The translations under genes and the position numbers were made by a program. Shown piece by piece: positions 1,252 to 7,633 of a DNA stretch of 44,523 nt (its first letter is position 1; each line of letters opens with the position of its first letter). Source of the DNA: Terriglobia bacterium. Lineage in GTDB: Bacteria; Acidobacteriota; Terriglobia; UBA7540. A model generated the notes under the pieces. It saw only the letters and a list, made by a program, of their open reading frames with translations, ran no database searches and was not told where the DNA came from. The stretch is from NCBI GenBank assembly GCA_020073545.1, contig JAIQEZ010000028.1:1-44523 (forward strand), read 5' to 3'.

Positions 1252-2553
1252 TCAACCCCGCGCCTGCGTCCGAGCTTCCCGCGGACCGAGGGACTTGTTG
1301 GGATCAACCACCAGCCAGGCTGCGGCGCCCAGGGCACACAACCCGGCGGCGGTCAGGAACGGTGCGGTCCAGCCGAAGTGCCTGGCGAGCGCAGGCGTCA
1401 GAGCCGCAGTCACTGCGCCCCCTATTTGGCCTCCCATATTCATGAAACCGGAAAGTGAGCCGGAGGAGCGTCCGCCCAAGTCCGCGGAGAGCGCCCAATA
1501 GGCGCTTTGCGAGATGTAGAGCGCGCCCGCGCCACCGGCGAGCATGATACTGGCCGCGGCAGCACTGTGCGCCCGAGCGCCGAAGGCCACGAACACCGCG
1601 GCTCCCGTCAGACCCAAGGCTGCCACTCCACAGCGTCCCCACCAGCGCCCAAAACGCCGGCTCACGGCGTCGGCGATCCAGCCGCCCGCTGCCGATCCCA
1701 GGGACATCGCCACGAAAGGCAACATGCCGTAATAGCTGCCGGTCTTGAGGTCCAGACCGCGAACCCTGGTCAGATAAATGTAAAACCAAGTGAAGAAAAT
1801 GTAGGCGACATACCCGAAGCAGAAATAGCTGAGGGTGATGGCCCAAACGTCCTGACTCGCGAGCATTGTGCCCCACGAGAGTTTGGGTCCCTCGACGCGC
1901 TCACCTTGCGGGATGCCCTCGCGAATCCATTTTCTTTCGGCGTCGTTCACCCAGGCATGCTGGTCGGGATGATCGCGCGCTATGCCGTACCACCCCACTG
2001 CCACCAGCAGTCCCAGCAAGGCGCAGAACCAGAAGGCGGCACGCCAGCCGAAGTGAATCATGAGAGAAGCGATGAGGGGCGGCGTCAGGGCGGCGCCGGC
2101 GCCCACCCCGGCAAAGATCAGGCCGTTGGCCAAGCCGCGCTCCGCCGTGGGCACCCAGTTGGCTACCCAGCGGTTCGAGCTCGGGTACATGACGGACTCG
2201 CCCACGCCCAGCAGGAAGCGTACGGCCAATAAGACCAGAAACGCCTTCGCCAAGCCCGCGGGGATACTTGCCGTGAGCGTGGTGAAAACGGCCCACCACG
2301 TGGCGCCGAGCGCCAGCACGCGACGCGGGCCAAGACGATCCGCCGCCCAGCCGCCACCAATCTGAAAGAGCCCATAGCCCAGCGAGAAGGCGCTAAAGAC
2401 CCAGCCAAGCTGCGCGTCCGTGAGGTGAAATCCCTGAGAGATGGATTGTCCGGCGATGGAGATATTGACCCGGTCGAGGTAGCTGATCGCGCCCATCAGG
2501 GTCATCCAGGCCACCAGCATCCAGCGAACACGCGTTGGTTTGTCGGAGTCCAT
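1252..2553 (-). CDS. MFS transporter, anion:cation symporter (ACS) type
   Basis: The protein has 433 residues and about 12 hydrophobic segments. It starts with a short cytoplasmic tail and the YLDRVNISIAG segment of TM1 that is characteristic of the ACS group (glucarate, galactonate and phthalate permeases). The loop-2 signature appears as GGWAADRLGPRR. It is therefore likely to import an organic anion; the substrate cannot be read from the sequence. The open frame continues upstream by 63 codons, but that extension is Cys/Arg-rich and unlike the family, so I place the start at the ATG at 2553. The ribosome-binding site is poor. The stop TGA at 1252-1254 lies 9 nt from the start of the truncated DUF1329 gene, so the two are probably cotranscribed. 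Confidence 0.85.
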   Translation of the reverse strand: MDSDKPTRVRWMLVAWMTLMGAISYLDRVNISIAGQSISQGFHLTDAQLGWVFSAFSLGYGLFQIGGGWAADRLGPRRVLALGATWWAVFTTLTASIPAGLAKAFLVLLAVRFLLGVGESVMYPSSNRWVANWVPTAERGLANGLIFAGVGAGAALTPPLIASLMIHFGWRAAFWFCALLGLLVAVGWYGIARDHPDQHAWVNDAERKWIREGIPQGERVEGPKLSWGTMLASQDVWAITLSYFCFGYVAYIFFTWFYIYLTRVRGLDLKTGSYYGMLPFVAMSLGSAAGGWIADAVSRRFGRWWGRCGVAALGLTGAAVFVAFGARAHSAAAASIMLAGGAGALYISQSAYWALSADLGGRSSGSLSGFMNMGGQIGGAVTAALTPALARHFGWTAPFLTAAGLCALGAAAWLVVDPNKSLGPREARTQARG

Positions 2554-2717
2554 CGAACGGTCTGGGCCGCTCAGGCCGGTGCGGCCCAAGGGCTCAACAG
2601 GTTGGCACGAATCGACGAGGATCGCAACAGTTGCGTGGGTGGCGCAGCCCAATGCAACGCACCGGGACAAGTGGGCTGCCCTGTTGAAGATTACACAATA
2701 GGGTGACAGGTTTTCCC

Positions 2718-2762
2718 CGTAGCGCCGCCGTCCCGGCGGCAATGCTTGATGCCGGCGCTACG
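2718..2762. repeat. Nested inverted repeat upstream of the MFS gene
   Basis: The outer arms CGTAGCGCCG (2718-2727) and CGGCGCTACG (2753-2762) are perfect complements. Between and overlapping them, GCCGCCG (2724-2730) and CGGCGGC (2734-2740) form an alternative inner hairpin. It resembles the short GC-rich palindromic elements dispersed in intergenic DNA of many high-GC genomes. It has no T-tract, so I do not call it a terminator. Confidence 0.7.
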
Positions 2763-2837
2763 AAAGCGCGTCACTATATTCGGTAATCTTCAGTAGATGT
2801 GCGCGCCGGCCGATCCCGCGTACGCGAGACACTGGCC

Positions 2838-2911
2838 TGGAAACTACGGAGGCTTGGAGCGGGTTCCCAAGTCTCGCCGGTCCCGCAGGCGCGGGATCAG
2901 CGCCACCCGCG
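2838..2911. repeat. 74-bp imperfect direct repeat, copy 1
   Basis: It aligns without gaps to 3187-3260 at about 85 % identity by eye. The best conserved part is the run GCAGGCGCGGGATCAGCGCC. It contains an imperfect version (one mismatch) of the GATCCCGC/GCGGGATC hairpin that is perfect in copy 2. Confidence 0.8.
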
Positions 2912-3186
2912 AAATCGCGGCAAATCGGGAATGGTAGCACAGGGCCCGTGGTCTGGCCCTGCGGCTCTTCCAGCAGCACGGGGCTTTGCCGCGTTGCAAA
3001 CTCGATAATCTTGGGTTTCTTCGGCCGCGCCTTAAACAAAAGCTCTCCATCCTCCTAGCCGCGCCGCCAGTAGCGCGTCGCGGTGGAAAAGCCGCAAGGC
3101 TGGAGAGCGAGCCTTGCGTTACGTTGCTCTCGCGGGTGGCGCAAACATTCCCCCGGATGTACACGCCGGTGGACAATGCAGCGGCT

Positions 3187-3260
3187 TGGAAATTGGGGAG
3201 GCTTGGACCGGGTTTCCAAAGGTCGCCGATCCCGCAGGCGCGGGATCAGCGCCACGCGCG
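3187..3260. repeat. 74-bp imperfect direct repeat, copy 2
   Basis: Second copy of the repeat at 2838-2911. The arms GATCCCGC (3228-3235) and GCGGGATC (3240-3247) are perfect complements around an AGGC loop. It ends about 30 nt downstream of no gene start and 27 nt before the stop codon of the AlbA_2 gene, so it lies in that gene's 3' region. Confidence 0.8.
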
Positions 3261-3287
3261 AGAAACACTAAGCTGGTGTGCGGCGGG

Positions 3288-4679
3288 TCAAGACGCGAAC
3301 TCGGCGACGAGTCTCCTCAGGTCTTCTGGTTGTGCCTGGACGTCCGCAGACCCGTGGCGCAAGTAGATGACGCCATTCATCATGTAGATTGGTGCCTCAC
3401 CGCGCGCAACGGAAATCTTAGCGATTGTCAGACCCCGCACGTCCTCAAAGGTGAACTGAATAGGTGGCGTCGGCTTTATGCGGCTCCGGACAAGCTGGTG
3501 GATTTTCCTTTCCAGGCGGTCTCTCTGTTTGAAGTCGAGCTCCAGCCCCTTTACGTGACCGGTATCGTCGACCCCTATGAAGACCACCCCATCGTCCGTG
3601 TTCGCGAATGCCGCTATTGACCTCAGCAGCTCATCGTCGACGCTGCCACTCTTTGCTTCGTCGTCAGAAATGCCTCGTTTGAACTCGACGTTCCGCCCCT
3701 CGCCGGTTCGCTGGGCTTCCTCAAGAGTTGGCACTCGGATTCCTGCCAAAGCGAAATATCTCCGCAAGTATCGCCGGCTGAGGGAGCGAGCTAAGACACT
3801 GATGCCTAGGAATGCGATGCCGCAAAGAGCCGCCAGCCACCAGAGGCTTCCAATGTCGACAAACGAGATCGCCAGAAGCGGGTCCTTGACGGCCGTCTCG
3901 ACAAGGTAGACTTCGTCGTCGCGGATGTAAAGCTGATAACCGGGGGCCGGTAGCCTCGCACCCTTGCGCAGGAACGTGGGGAGCGACGGCCCCCACACCT
4001 CAACGCGGTTGGTATGCGCATCCACAACTACGAATCCGTCAGCCGAAAGCCTGAGCCTTGACCCTCGGGCTGATGCTTTCTGGGTTGGAGGGTTCGCAGC
4101 GATCTCATCGGCCTCGCGCTTGAGCCTAGCGTCCACCGTGCCAATTTGCGACTGCAGCGTCTCTAGCATTTTCCAAGGGGCCTTGACGGCGTAGCCTATA
4201 AGGATTTCAACCTTCTTTTCGGCCACGCTTGCTTCCCGCGAGTACAAACGCCAGACTTCTCCGTCCGGCGTGTTATACGAAGTGGGCTCGCGGAATCCTC
4301 TGATGAACGCTGTATCCAAATAGTCCAGGGGCGGGAAATGCGCTGGGACTTCTTCTGTCGAAGCTGGAAAAGCGATAAGGTACAGCGTCTGCGTGTCATT
4401 CACATAGATCACATAATCGGGTTCCTCCAGCTGCCAGTCTGTTGTGAACTGGCTTGTGTCGCACGTTCCGCCCGAGCAATCGATTTCAGACAGAGCCCGC
4501 CAACTGTCCCGTTCGCAGCGTTGGACAAAGGGATAGGCTGATACGATGTACACAAACGCCGTCACGAGAGCTGCAACCACTCCGATCGATAGAGAGAAGC
4601 GGAGAATCTTGCGGTCTACGTGTCGCCGCACAAAATGAAGCTTGGCGGTATTTCTAGCGGAAGCATCTGACGCTGACAC
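3288..4679 (-). CDS. Membrane-anchored AlbA_2 (Schlafen-type) protein with periplasmic sensor-like domain
   Basis: The protein has 463 residues. Order: basic N-terminus; TM1 about residues 25-50 (RFSLSIGVVAALVTAFVYIV); a region of about 220 residues with three cysteines near its start and PDGEVWRLYSR and DGFVVVDAHTNRVEVWGPS segments, like extracytoplasmic sensor domains of histidine kinases; TM2 about residues 275-300 (WWLAALCGIAFLGISVLA); then an AlbA_2 domain of about 130 residues (VEFKRGIS, LLRSIAAFANTDDGVVFIGVDD, YLRHGSAD). AlbA_2 domains are usually soluble, in Schlafen-like and putative DNA-binding ATPase proteins. The two-TM receptor arrangement suggests signal input from the periplasm to a nucleic-acid or nucleotide-binding output; that is inference. 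There is no ATG. I choose GTG at 4679 because AGGTGG lies five bases before it; an earlier GTG is at 4688. The gene stands alone. Confidence 0.8.
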   Translation of the reverse strand: MSASDASARNTAKLHFVRRHVDRKILRFSLSIGVVAALVTAFVYIVSAYPFVQRCERDSWRALSEIDCSGGTCDTSQFTTDWQLEEPDYVIYVNDTQTLYLIAFPASTEEVPAHFPPLDYLDTAFIRGFREPTSYNTPDGEVWRLYSREASVAEKKVEILIGYAVKAPWKMLETLQSQIGTVDARLKREADEIAANPPTQKASARGSRLRLSADGFVVVDAHTNRVEVWGPSLPTFLRKGARLPAPGYQLYIRDDEVYLVETAVKDPLLAISFVDIGSLWWLAALCGIAFLGISVLARSLSRRYLRRYFALAGIRVPTLEEAQRTGEGRNVEFKRGISDDEAKSGSVDDELLRSIAAFANTDDGVVFIGVDDTGHVKGLELDFKQRDRLERKIHQLVRSRIKPTPPIQFTFEDVRGLTIAKISVARGEAPIYMMNGVIYLRHGSADVQAQPEDLRRLVAEFAS

Positions 4680-5101
4680 AACGACCACCTAGGAAATGCC
4701 GATAGCATACCATTTTCGCGGCCTTCCGCGAAAGTGCCCTGGCCGACGTGATGATGGGACTTTCGGTTGTGGCATGGCGTTCCTTACTCTCCCCAACATC
4801 GATGGTGGTGGGCCAGGATTCCGGGCTTGTCGGCGCCGCCCGCGGGCAATGTGTCCGATCGATTCAACTTTCCTCCTACCGGTAGGCTAAAAGTGCTCCA
4901 CCCCTCTTGACTTCAAACTGGGACCTTGGCCTAGACTGGACTTATGAGGGCCGTGCCGCGAGTCTGCGTGACGATTCCGCCTCGGGGCCTCTTCGGCGGT
5001 CCCGCCCTGCGGGACAACGAAGCATCTGGCACGGGCTATGAAAATGTACAGGGCGAGGTTGTTCGCGAACTTTGCCCCGAGCGAAATGAAAAAGATCCTT
5101 C

Positions 5102-5120
5102 GTCCCGATCAGATCGGGAC
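5102..5120. repeat. Perfect TCCCGATC/GATCGGGA palindrome
   Basis: GTCCCGATC and GATCGGGAC face each other around a single A. It belongs to the group of short TCCCG...CGGGA hairpins also seen at 3228-3247, 41925-41940 and 43949-43966. Confidence 0.7.
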
Positions 5121-5405
5121 TCAGGATGACAGCGAATGGGATCAGGTCCCATTTCTGGTTCGATCACATCGAACCTCGGACTCCTGGGATCGGAGACCCC
5201 AGCCATCGGAGACGACCGCAGGGAAGAGTTTCTCCGTGGCCTGCACAAGGCTGCGGTTTGCCACGATATAGCAGAAACAAAAGGGGTTACCGATCGAGAG
5301 CGAAAACTCTGCAGAAATCTATGTCATTTAAATCAAAGGAGTTAGTTGATTCTGCCGCAACCAGGCTGACGAAAAAAAAGGGGGCCCCAAAATGAAGGTA
5401 AGTCT

Positions 5406-5521
5406 CACGATGCTATTGAAAACAAATGGAGAAGAAATGCCCGTTTGCGGGTTTTCCACGATGTTGATGAAAAAAAGCAAGTTAAGTCCACTCTGCCACG
5501 ATGTACTTGAAAACAAGTTAG
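5406..5521. repeat. Three copies of a 25-nt CACGATG...AAAACAA repeat
   Basis: Copies begin at 5406, 5457 and 5497. Each starts CACGATG and continues with a TTGAAAACAA-like tail (the middle copy is TGAAAAAAAG). The steps of 51 and 40 nt put the third copy in another reading frame from the first two, so what is conserved is the DNA or RNA, not a peptide. A CCCG/CGGG stem followed by TTTT lies between copies one and two (5440-5455). Confidence 0.6.
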
Positions 5522-5746
5522 ATAGCTGCATCGAAGCGCCCCAAGCGGGCGGAGAACCCGTCTCGGGCTCGGCATGAAATGACGTTCATGACACGAGGAG
5601 AGATACTCAGCGCCGGCAACGTACGGAGCAACGGACACGTTGCGGGCCAACACGGTCTGCCGCCCCGCGTCGCCGCGGGAACTGAAGCGAGCGATCGTAT
5701 TGTCGACATTTCTGGATCTGTGACTGCAGCGGGAGGATTCTGATTC

Positions 5747-7633
5747 ATGCGCTTTAGGGTGAACCGCCGCACCTTTCTCAAGCAAAGCACCACCACGTTG
5801 CTCGCCGCGTCGGCGTGGCCTGGTGCGATTCCCACGACCACCAGACCCACCACGAGGGTGGAAAGAGAGTGGCGCACCTACGGCGGCAATCCCGCCGGAC
5901 TGCGCTACTCGCCGCTTGCCCAGATCAATCGCTCGAACGTGCACAAGCTACGGGTCGCCTGGACGTATCACACCGGCGACAGCCGCGACAACCCTTTCAC
6001 GACCATCGAGTGTACGCCGCTCGTGGTGGATGGCGTGATGTATCTCACCACCGCGCAGTTGAAACTCTGCGCGCTGCAGGCGGCCAGGGGAAAACTCCTC
6101 TGGCAGTTCGATCCCTTCGAAGGCATGGACGCCGACACACCGCGCGGAGTGAATCGCGGGGTGGCGTATTGGGAAGACGGCAACGACCAACGCATCTTCT
6201 TCGTGGCGCGCGCTCGCTTGATGGCGCTTGACGCCAAAACCGGCAAGCTGATTCACGACTTCGGTCAGGGCGGCAGTGTGGATCTGACCCAGGGCCTGGG
6301 CCGCGAACTTCGCGGCCTGACGTATGACGTCGCGACGCCCGGCATCATTTACAGAAATCTGATCATCGTGGGATCGACGTGCGACCAAGGCCCGGAACCC
6401 GCCGCCCCCGGCCACGTGCGCGCCTTTGACGTGCGCACCGGGGTAATGGCCTGGCTTTTTCACACCATTCCTCGCTCCGGTGAGTTCGGCAACGAGACCT
6501 GGGAGGGGAATTCCTGGCGCACGGCGGGGGGCGCCAACGATTGGGGCGGCATGACCCTGGATGAAAAGCGCGGCTGGGTTTTCCTCTCTACGGGCTCCGC
6601 CACGTTTGATTTCTACGGCGGGCAGCGCCTGGGACAGAACCTTTTCGCGAATTGCGTGCTCGCACTCGACGCTGCCACCGGCAAGCGCCTTTGGCACTAC
6701 CAGGTCGTGCATCACGATTTGTGGGATCGCGATCTTCCCTGCCCGCCCGCACTCGTGACGCTGAACCTCAACGGCAAACGCGTTGACGCTGTTGTGCAGC
6801 CCACCAAGTTCGGCCAGCTCTTCGTGCTCGAGCGCGAAACCGGCAAGCCGCTTTTTCCAATTGAAGAGCGGCCTGTGCCGGAGTCGGACGTTCCCGGCGA
6901 AAAGGCTTGGCCCACCCAGCCGCAGGTGCTGAAGCCGCCGCCGTACGCGCGGCAAGTCTTCACGGAAGACGACATCACAAATATCTCGCCGGAAGCACAC
7001 GCCGCCGTGATGGAAATCTTCAAGAAATCGCGCAGCGGCGCGTGGCAACCGCCCAGCTTGCAGGGGACAATCATCTTTCCGGGGTTCGACGGGGGCTCGA
7101 ACTGGGGCGGCGGTTCGTTCGATCCCGTCACGGGCCGGTACTACATCAACTCTCAAGACGAACCGTGGATCCTTACACTCGTGGCCGCGCCCGCCGGGGC
7201 CGGCTATCCTTACACGCACGCCGGCTACAAGCGCTTCGTTGACCAGGAAGGCTACGCGGCCATCAAGCCGCCCTGGGGACAGCTTACCGCCTGCGATTTG
7301 AACAAGGGCGAGATCGTGTGGCAGGTCGTGCTCGGCGAGCACAAGGAATTGACCGCGCGGGGCATCCTGCCCACCGGCACGCAGAACATCGGAGGCTCCG
7401 TCGTCACTGCCGGTGGGTTGGTCTTTATCGGCGCAACTCAGGATGAGAAGTTTCGCGCCTTCGATAAGACCTATGGCCAACTCCTGTGGGAAGCGCAGCT
7501 CCCCGCCGGTGGATACGCGAGTCCCTGCACTTACGAAGTGAACGGCATGCAGTACGTGGTTATCGCCGCGGGCGGCGGTGGCAAACCTCCTACCCGCTCG
7601 GGAGACGCCTATGTGGCGTTCGCTCTTCCGTGA
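5747..7633 (+). CDS. PQQ-dependent dehydrogenase (glucose-dehydrogenase-like), Tat-exported
   Basis: The protein has 628 residues. The N-terminus carries a twin-arginine motif (NRRTFLK, residues 6-12) followed by an alanine-rich hydrophobic stretch, so it is probably folded and exported to the periplasm by Tat. The rest is a quinoprotein beta-propeller: EWRTYGGNPAGLRYSPL at the start, repeated ALDAKTGKL/ALDAATGKRLW blades, HHDLWDRDLPCPP, and FDGGSNWGGGSFDPVTGRYY, as in membrane-type PQQ glucose/alcohol dehydrogenases. It lacks the N-terminal TM bundle of membrane GDH and has no cytochrome c domain or CxxCH, so a separate electron acceptor is needed. GGGAGGA lies about 10 nt before the ATG. 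No PQQ synthesis gene is in the window. The substrate is unknown. Confidence 0.85.
   Translation: MRFRVNRRTFLKQSTTTLLAASAWPGAIPTTTRPTTRVEREWRTYGGNPAGLRYSPLAQINRSNVHKLRVAWTYHTGDSRDNPFTTIECTPLVVDGVMYLTTAQLKLCALQAARGKLLWQFDPFEGMDADTPRGVNRGVAYWEDGNDQRIFFVARARLMALDAKTGKLIHDFGQGGSVDLTQGLGRELRGLTYDVATPGIIYRNLIIVGSTCDQGPEPAAPGHVRAFDVRTGVMAWLFHTIPRSGEFGNETWEGNSWRTAGGANDWGGMTLDEKRGWVFLSTGSATFDFYGGQRLGQNLFANCVLALDAATGKRLWHYQVVHHDLWDRDLPCPPALVTLNLNGKRVDAVVQPTKFGQLFVLERETGKPLFPIEERPVPESDVPGEKAWPTQPQVLKPPPYARQVFTEDDITNISPEAHAAVMEIFKKSRSGAWQPPSLQGTIIFPGFDGGSNWGGGSFDPVTGRYYINSQDEPWILTLVAAPAGAGYPYTHAGYKRFVDQEGYAAIKPPWGQLTACDLNKGEIVWQVVLGEHKELTARGILPTGTQNIGGSVVTAGGLVFIGATQDEKFRAFDKTYGQLLWEAQLPAGGYASPCTYEVNGMQYVVIAAGGGGKPPTRSGDAYVAFALP

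What the first reader, a model, noticed from the sequence alone, without database searches (positions are those of the whole stretch)
3288..4679. Receptor-like AlbA_2/Schlafen protein with a periplasmic sensor-like domain
AlbA_2 domains are normally cytoplasmic parts of putative DNA-binding or ATPase proteins. Here it follows two TM helices that bracket a ~220-residue domain resembling histidine-kinase sensor modules (PDGEVWRLYSR, DGFVVVDAHTNRVEVW). This gives a one-protein route from an external signal to a nucleic-acid-acting output, possibly stress or phage-sensing. It stands alone between repeat-rich gaps.
Basis: partly seen in the sequence, partly recalled or inferred. Interest (0 to 1): 0.62.

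Follow-up and report, generated by a model that had tools for sequence, protein, structure and literature searches.

The report
Membrane-receptor-like bacterial Schlafen protein
One bacterial gene encodes a protein with a sensor-like domain outside the inner membrane joined through the membrane to an RNA-cutting-type (Schlafen/AlbA_2) domain inside the cell, and unrelated signalling modules joined to the same kind of domain turned up in other genomes of the phylum, so the domain may be a reusable output switch, although nothing has yet been shown by experiment.

Summary
Window 3288-4688, minus strand, is one intact 463-466 aa gene: basic N-tail, TM1 (residues 31-51), a 227-residue segment that topology puts in the periplasm, TM2 (279-299), basic linker, and a C-terminal SLFN_AlbA_2 domain (Pfam E 3.8e-19; confident AlphaFold model, Z 10-13 to SAMD9 and Schlafen nuclease domains) with the Schlafen carboxylate triad E330/E335/D375. 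The claimed resemblance of the middle domain to histidine-kinase sensors is not supported: no profile match, no relative in about 750 sampled genomes, no confident fold. Defence context is not supported: neighbours are metabolic and transport genes. Following AlbA_2 outward gave the stronger result. In the same phylum, C-terminal AlbA_2 is fused to a second, unrelated TM-sensor-TM input (L108, L159), to a response-regulator receiver encoded directly after a hybrid histidine kinase (L160), and to an ion channel (L153). The window's AlbA_2 does not group with L108/L159 (AU p 0.008), so the receptor layout probably arose twice. Best reading: a one-component membrane receptor whose output is a Schlafen-type RNase or RNA-binding domain, most simply switched by dimerisation. 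Activity, ligand and biological role are untested.

The parts
3288..4688 (-). Whole CDS (466 aa from GTG 4688; 463 aa from the preferred GTG at 4679; stop 3288-3290)
   Evidence: the only match to itself in its own genome
4685..4690 (-). AGGTGG, putative Shine-Dalgarno for the GTG at 4679
   Evidence: read directly from the sequence
4536..4598 (-). TM1, residues 31-51, preceded by a basic cytoplasmic tail (7 K/R, 2 D/E)
3855..4535 (-). Predicted periplasmic domain, residues 52-278; acidic overall; strand/helix pattern bb-a-bbb-long a-bbbb (low confidence)
   Evidence: no known family
4461..4517 (-). Three cysteines (C58, C71, C76) at the membrane-proximal start of the periplasmic domain; possible disulfide
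   Evidence: sequence; function inferred
3792..3854 (-). TM2, residues 279-299
3723..3788 (-). Basic juxtamembrane linker, residues 301-322 (RSLSRRYLRRYF...), cytoplasmic side
   Evidence: modelled as a helix continuous with TM2
3336..3701 (-). SLFN_AlbA_2 domain (PF04326), residues 330-451
3684..3701 (-). E330 and E335 (ExxxxEFK motif), first two residues of the Schlafen carboxylate triad
   Evidence: SLFN13 E205/E210 in PMC5862951
3564..3566 (-). D375 (GVDD), third residue of the triad (SLFN13 D248)
4999..5146 (+). Dispersed intergenic repeat upstream of the gene (many copies in the genome)
5253..5516 (+). About 260-bp dispersed repeat upstream of the gene with an invariant AAAAAAxGGGGCCCCAxxATGAAGGTAA core
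2834..3261 (+). 79-nt repeat, two copies (2834-2912, 3183-3261), downstream of the gene

Best explanation
A one-component transmembrane receptor. The 227-residue periplasmic domain senses an unknown envelope or external cue. The signal passes through TM2 and the continuous basic helix that follows it to a cytoplasmic single-lobe Schlafen/AlbA_2 domain that carries the carboxylate triad. Schlafen cores that cleave tRNA use two such lobes facing each other, so the simplest switch is ligand-controlled pairing of two protomers, which would assemble an RNA-cutting or RNA-binding groove at the inner membrane and slow translation under stress. Shown: the gene, the topology (by prediction), domain identity and fold, the triad. 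Inferred by analogy: output activity on RNA. Guessed: ligand, dimer switch, physiological role.
For: Topology and domain. AlbA_2 part modelled at pLDDT mostly above 90 and matching SAMD9 tRNase/DNA-binding and SLFN5/11/12/13/14 structures at Z 8-13, mostly 10 or more, with unrelated folds at 6.1 and below. Triad E330/E335/D375 present, with K337, N363, G372 and R444 near-invariant over 162 domains; [quoted passage not shown] The same domain sits behind other signal inputs in the phylum: TM-ECD-TM (L108, L159), receiver domain (L160, Response_reg E 3.4e-30, encoded directly after a hybrid histidine kinase) and ion channel (L153, Ion_trans E 2.9e-36). REC-AlbA_2 and TM-AlbA_2 are sisters in the tree (98/86), so the same output was swapped between inputs.
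Against: No activity has been shown for this protein. The triad is common to much of the family (129 of 162), so it does not single out nucleases. A single lobe may only bind nucleic acid. The periplasmic domain has no recognisable fold or relatives, so sensing is inferred from topology alone. The receptor form of L108/L159 is not a close relative (AU p 0.0076). The gene is a singleton absent from its sampled congeners.
Confidence: 0.45

Rival explanations
1. A membrane-anchored, ToxR/CadC-like regulator: the AlbA_2 domain binds DNA or RNA and controls expression, without cutting.
For: AlbA_2 is often described as a DNA-binding domain (PMC6299218; PMC5445408), and one of the best structural matches is a SAMD9 domain bound to DNA (7ksp). 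A basic linker lies next to TM2.
Against: The carboxylate triad is complete; no HTH; no conserved target gene or operon, since the gene stands alone.
Confidence: 0.25
2. An abortive-infection phage-defence protein: the periplasmic or membrane part detects phage attack and the Schlafen domain cleaves tRNA, stopping growth.
For: Schlafen-family RNases are reported as backup effectors in BREX loci, with bacterial Schlafens cited as anti-phage (PMC12839542 citing preprint 10.1101/2025.07.24.666596). C-terminal AlbA_2 is fused to GmrSD and HsdR-like restriction proteins in the same phylum. The gene is patchy and of lower GC3 than most neighbours.
Against: No defence genes among the other window ORFs that were scanned; PADLOC gave nothing significant for the protein. 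The window AlbA_2 is not placed inside the clade that holds the restriction fusions, although this is not excluded (AU p 0.36).
Confidence: 0.18
3. A tether: the N-terminal part only anchors an AlbA_2 domain to the membrane and the periplasmic segment senses nothing, as the TM helix of SLFL-3/4 anchors a Schlafen nuclease complex.
For: Membrane anchoring of Schlafen-domain nuclease subunits is known in C. elegans PUCH (PMC10567574).
Against: A 227-residue domain between two TM helices is more than an anchor needs.
Confidence: 0.1

Closest known systems
Eukaryotic Schlafen nucleases (SLFN13/11/14 core; PF04326)
   Same: AlbA_2 fold (Z about 8-11) and E/E/D carboxylate triad
   Different: One lobe instead of two; joined to TM helices and a periplasmic domain
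SAMD9/SAMD9L tRNase / DNA-binding domain
   Same: Single AlbA_2 domain, among the best structural matches (Z 12-13)
   Different: SAMD9 is a STAND-like NTPase protein; no receptor part
PUCH complex SLFL-3/SLFL-4 (C. elegans)
   Same: Schlafen domain with a TM helix (PMC10567574)
   Different: Single C-terminal anchor in an intracellular trimer; no extracytoplasmic domain
Usual bacterial AlbA_2 genes (annotated 'ATP-binding' or 'RNA-binding domain-containing' protein)
   Same: Same Pfam domain
   Different: AlbA_2 is N-terminal and cytoplasmic there; most of the 164 ORFs surveyed are of this kind
L108/L159 (same phylum, anonymous genomes)
   Same: TM - large extracytoplasmic domain - TM - C-terminal AlbA_2 with the triad
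   Different: Periplasmic domains not related by sequence; AlbA_2 in a different clade
One-component membrane regulators (ToxR/CadC) and sensor histidine kinases
   Same: Membrane-spanning sensor layout with a cytoplasmic output (family knowledge)
   Different: Output is AlbA_2, not HTH or kinase; sensor domain matches no known family

Membership tests
SLFN_AlbA_2 (PF04326) | Profile match above the curated cut-off | tested here: met
   69.8 bits against 25.3, E 3.8e-19
SLFN_AlbA_2 (PF04326) | AlbA_2/Schlafen fold | tested here: met
   AlphaFold pLDDT mostly >90; Z 8-13 to SLFN and SAMD9 structures, unrelated folds at 6.1 and below
Schlafen-type endoribonuclease | E/E/D carboxylate triad | tested here: met
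   E330, E335, D375; triad from PMC5862951
Schlafen-type endoribonuclease | Two AlbA_2-like lobes forming the tRNA-gripping U shape | tested here: not met
   Only one AlbA_2 domain in the protein; a homodimer could supply the second, untested
Schlafen-type endoribonuclease | Metal-dependent RNA cleavage | not testable with these tools
   needs purified protein
Transmembrane one-component receptor | Two TM helices bracketing an extracytoplasmic domain, cytoplasmic output | tested here: met
   predicted by hydrophobicity, insertion score and charge bias
Transmembrane one-component receptor | Known sensor fold (PAS/Cache/2CSK etc.) or demonstrated ligand | tested here: inconclusive
   no family match; low-confidence models
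Anti-phage defence system | Match to a catalogued defence protein or position in a defence island | tested here: not met

The most novel reading that the evidence does not exclude
Schlafen/AlbA_2 is a general output module of bacterial signal transduction: membrane receptors, two-component response regulators and ion channels each switch a Schlafen-type RNase on or off, linking envelope or environmental signals directly to RNA cleavage without transcription. The window protein is one independently assembled member.
Probability: 0.25. Interest if true: 0.8.

Novelty: new variant of a known kind. Interest (0 to 1): 0.52.

Why it matters
Schlafens are known as antiviral tRNases of animals and, more recently, bacteria, but how prokaryotic AlbA_2 proteins are switched on is largely open. 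A natural protein in which the input is outside the cell and the output is a Schlafen domain, together with REC-, channel- and second receptor-AlbA_2 fusions, makes a direct test possible: give or remove the input and measure RNA cleavage. If it works, it would be a transcription-independent route from an envelope signal to RNA control. If it does not, AlbA_2 is more likely a nucleic-acid-binding or regulatory domain.

Tried and rejected
Histidine-kinase sensor homology: not upheld, for lack of any profile or sequence match. Relatives of the periplasmic domain: searched in 399 class genomes, 396 phylum genomes and plasmids; weak hits were off-frame or low-complexity chance matches (L016-L018, L079-L081). 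Full-length relatives in viral contigs, GTDB genomes, phages and plasmids: none; matches, where any, cover only AlbA_2. Defence island: none. Single-sequence AlphaFold of the periplasmic domain: pLDDT 44, no usable fold. Common origin with L108/L159: rejected by AU test, p 0.0076; joining the whole C-terminal clade is not rejected, p 0.36. The gene's nearest AlbA_2 relative is unstable between trees, so no sister group is claimed. Rfam and tRNA scans of the neighbourhood: nothing.

Full report
What was checked. The window carries one open frame on the minus strand, 3288-4688, 466 aa. Codon-position GC is gene-like; GC3 is 0.649, lower than most neighbours (about 0.73-0.80). The genome holds one copy of the full-length gene and a second AlbA_2 gene of the usual soluble layout (L029). 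None of the eight sampled congeners has a full-length relative; the nearest congener at the locus, G006 (about 80% nucleotide identity in the flanking genes), has the MFS and PQQ genes separated by another gene and no AlbA_2 match. The gene therefore looks accessory, possibly acquired.

Topology. Two segments, residues 31-51 and 279-299, stand far above all others by hydrophobicity and by an approximate insertion score (-0.25 and -0.5, next best +8.6), and charges are positive outside them and negative between them. This predicts N-in, middle out, C-in. The middle has three cysteines near its start (C58, C71, C76). Its fold is unknown: no Pfam or PDB sequence match, no credible relative in 399 class and 396 phylum genomes or in plasmids, and low AlphaFold confidence with or without the AlbA_2 alignment. 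Both models show strands and helices, in an order (two strands, short helix, three strands, long helix, four strands, as pieced together from the two) compatible with, but not evidence for, a PAS/Cache-like sensor.

Output domain. PF04326 matches residues 330-451. The AlphaFold model of this part is confident and aligns with SAMD9 tRNase and DNA-binding structures (Z 12-13), the bacterial protein DIP2311 (Z 13) and SLFN5/11/12/13/14 (Z 8-11), with unrelated folds at Z 6.1 and below. E330, E335 and D375 match the SLFN13 triad E205/E210/D248 (PMC5862951); K337, N363, G372 and R444 are near-invariant across 162 domains, of which 129 keep the triad, counting D for E and E for D at the last two positions. 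So the triad is a family trait, consistent with but not proof of nuclease activity. Vertebrate Schlafen cores use two such lobes; this protein has one, hence the dimer hypothesis.

Survey of architectures. PF04326 is common: 72 of 200 class genomes and 148 of 396 phylum genomes. I collected 164 distinct AlbA_2 ORFs, with unusual lengths over-sampled, so these counts are not frequencies. In most the domain is N-terminal and the protein soluble. C-terminal AlbA_2 occurs behind GmrSD and type-I-restriction-R-like regions, and behind three kinds of signal input: TM-large domain-TM (L108; L159, partly masked), receiver domain (L160), and ion channel with a TTVGHGD filter (L153). The L160 gene begins within the end of a hybrid histidine kinase gene, so the pair looks like a two-component system with an AlbA_2 output. 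In a careful 49-row tree these fusions form a well-supported clade (100/98) in which REC-AlbA_2 is sister to the two TM-AlbA_2 proteins (98/86): the same output was swapped between inputs. The window protein lies outside this clade; grouping it with L108 and L159 is rejected (AU p 0.0076), placing it with the whole clade is not (p 0.36). The groups were defined by architecture, but the test was run after the tree had been seen. The receptor layout therefore probably arose more than once.

Context. The annotated window genes are MFS, DUF1329, PQQ dehydrogenase, metallo-beta-lactamase fold, MgtC/DUF4010, flotillin, M24 peptidase, alanine racemase N-domain, DNA polymerase III delta', a TonB-receptor-like outer membrane protein with a carboxypeptidase regulatory domain, TPR, NAPRTase, isochorismatase and ABC transporter. 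There is no defence island. The gaps on both sides are made of dispersed repeats.

Literature. Full-text searches found no paper joining AlbA_2 with response regulators or bacterial membrane receptors. Related work: Schlafen RNases as BREX accessories and bacterial Schlafens as anti-phage (PMC12839542 citing a preprint not held here); membrane-anchored Schlafen nuclease PUCH (PMC10567574); AlbA_2 in pAgo and SAMD9 proteins. Absence from this library is weak evidence of novelty.

Verdict. Anatomy is near certain by prediction; RNA-directed output is a fair inference; sensing, dimer switching and role are hypotheses.

Noticed in passing
L160:3-2499 (anonymous genome of the same phylum): Response-regulator receiver domain fused to C-terminal AlbA_2, encoded directly after (overlapping) a hybrid histidine kinase: looks like a two-component system with a Schlafen-type output.
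   Followed up: partly
L153 / L162 (same phylum): Ion_trans channel with a TTVGHGD selectivity filter fused to a C-terminal AlbA_2 domain, 404 aa. In the plasmid collection the listed hits were ion transporters matching the channel part.
   Followed up: partly
L108 full frame (511 aa), L159: Second, sequence-unrelated TM-extracytoplasmic-TM-AlbA_2 receptor-like protein in the same phylum.
   Followed up: partly
window 5253-5516: About 260-bp dispersed repeat, several near-full copies in the genome at 80-83% identity plus shorter ones, with an internal CACGATGTT..TTGAAAA unit and an invariant AAAAAAxGGGGCCCCAxxATGAAGGTAA core; one copy lies about 3 kb from the genome's other AlbA_2 gene. Nature unknown.
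   Followed up: partly
window 4999-5146: About 150-bp dispersed intergenic repeat with more than 15 copies (GATCCTTCGTCCC...GGACTCAGGATGACA).
   Followed up: no
window 2834-2912 and 3183-3261: 79-nt repeat, two copies in the gap downstream of the gene and five matches in the genome.
   Followed up: partly
window 1252-7633 against L189: Local rearrangement: in congener G006 the MFS and PQQ genes are in tandem with an oxidoreductase-like gene between; here the MFS gene is inverted and the AlbA_2 gene sits between.
   Followed up: partly
L021, L022 (same class): Two 437-448 aa soluble proteins with C-terminal AlbA_2 and an unassigned N-terminal 300-residue region (L022 has no other Pfam domain).
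   Followed up: no
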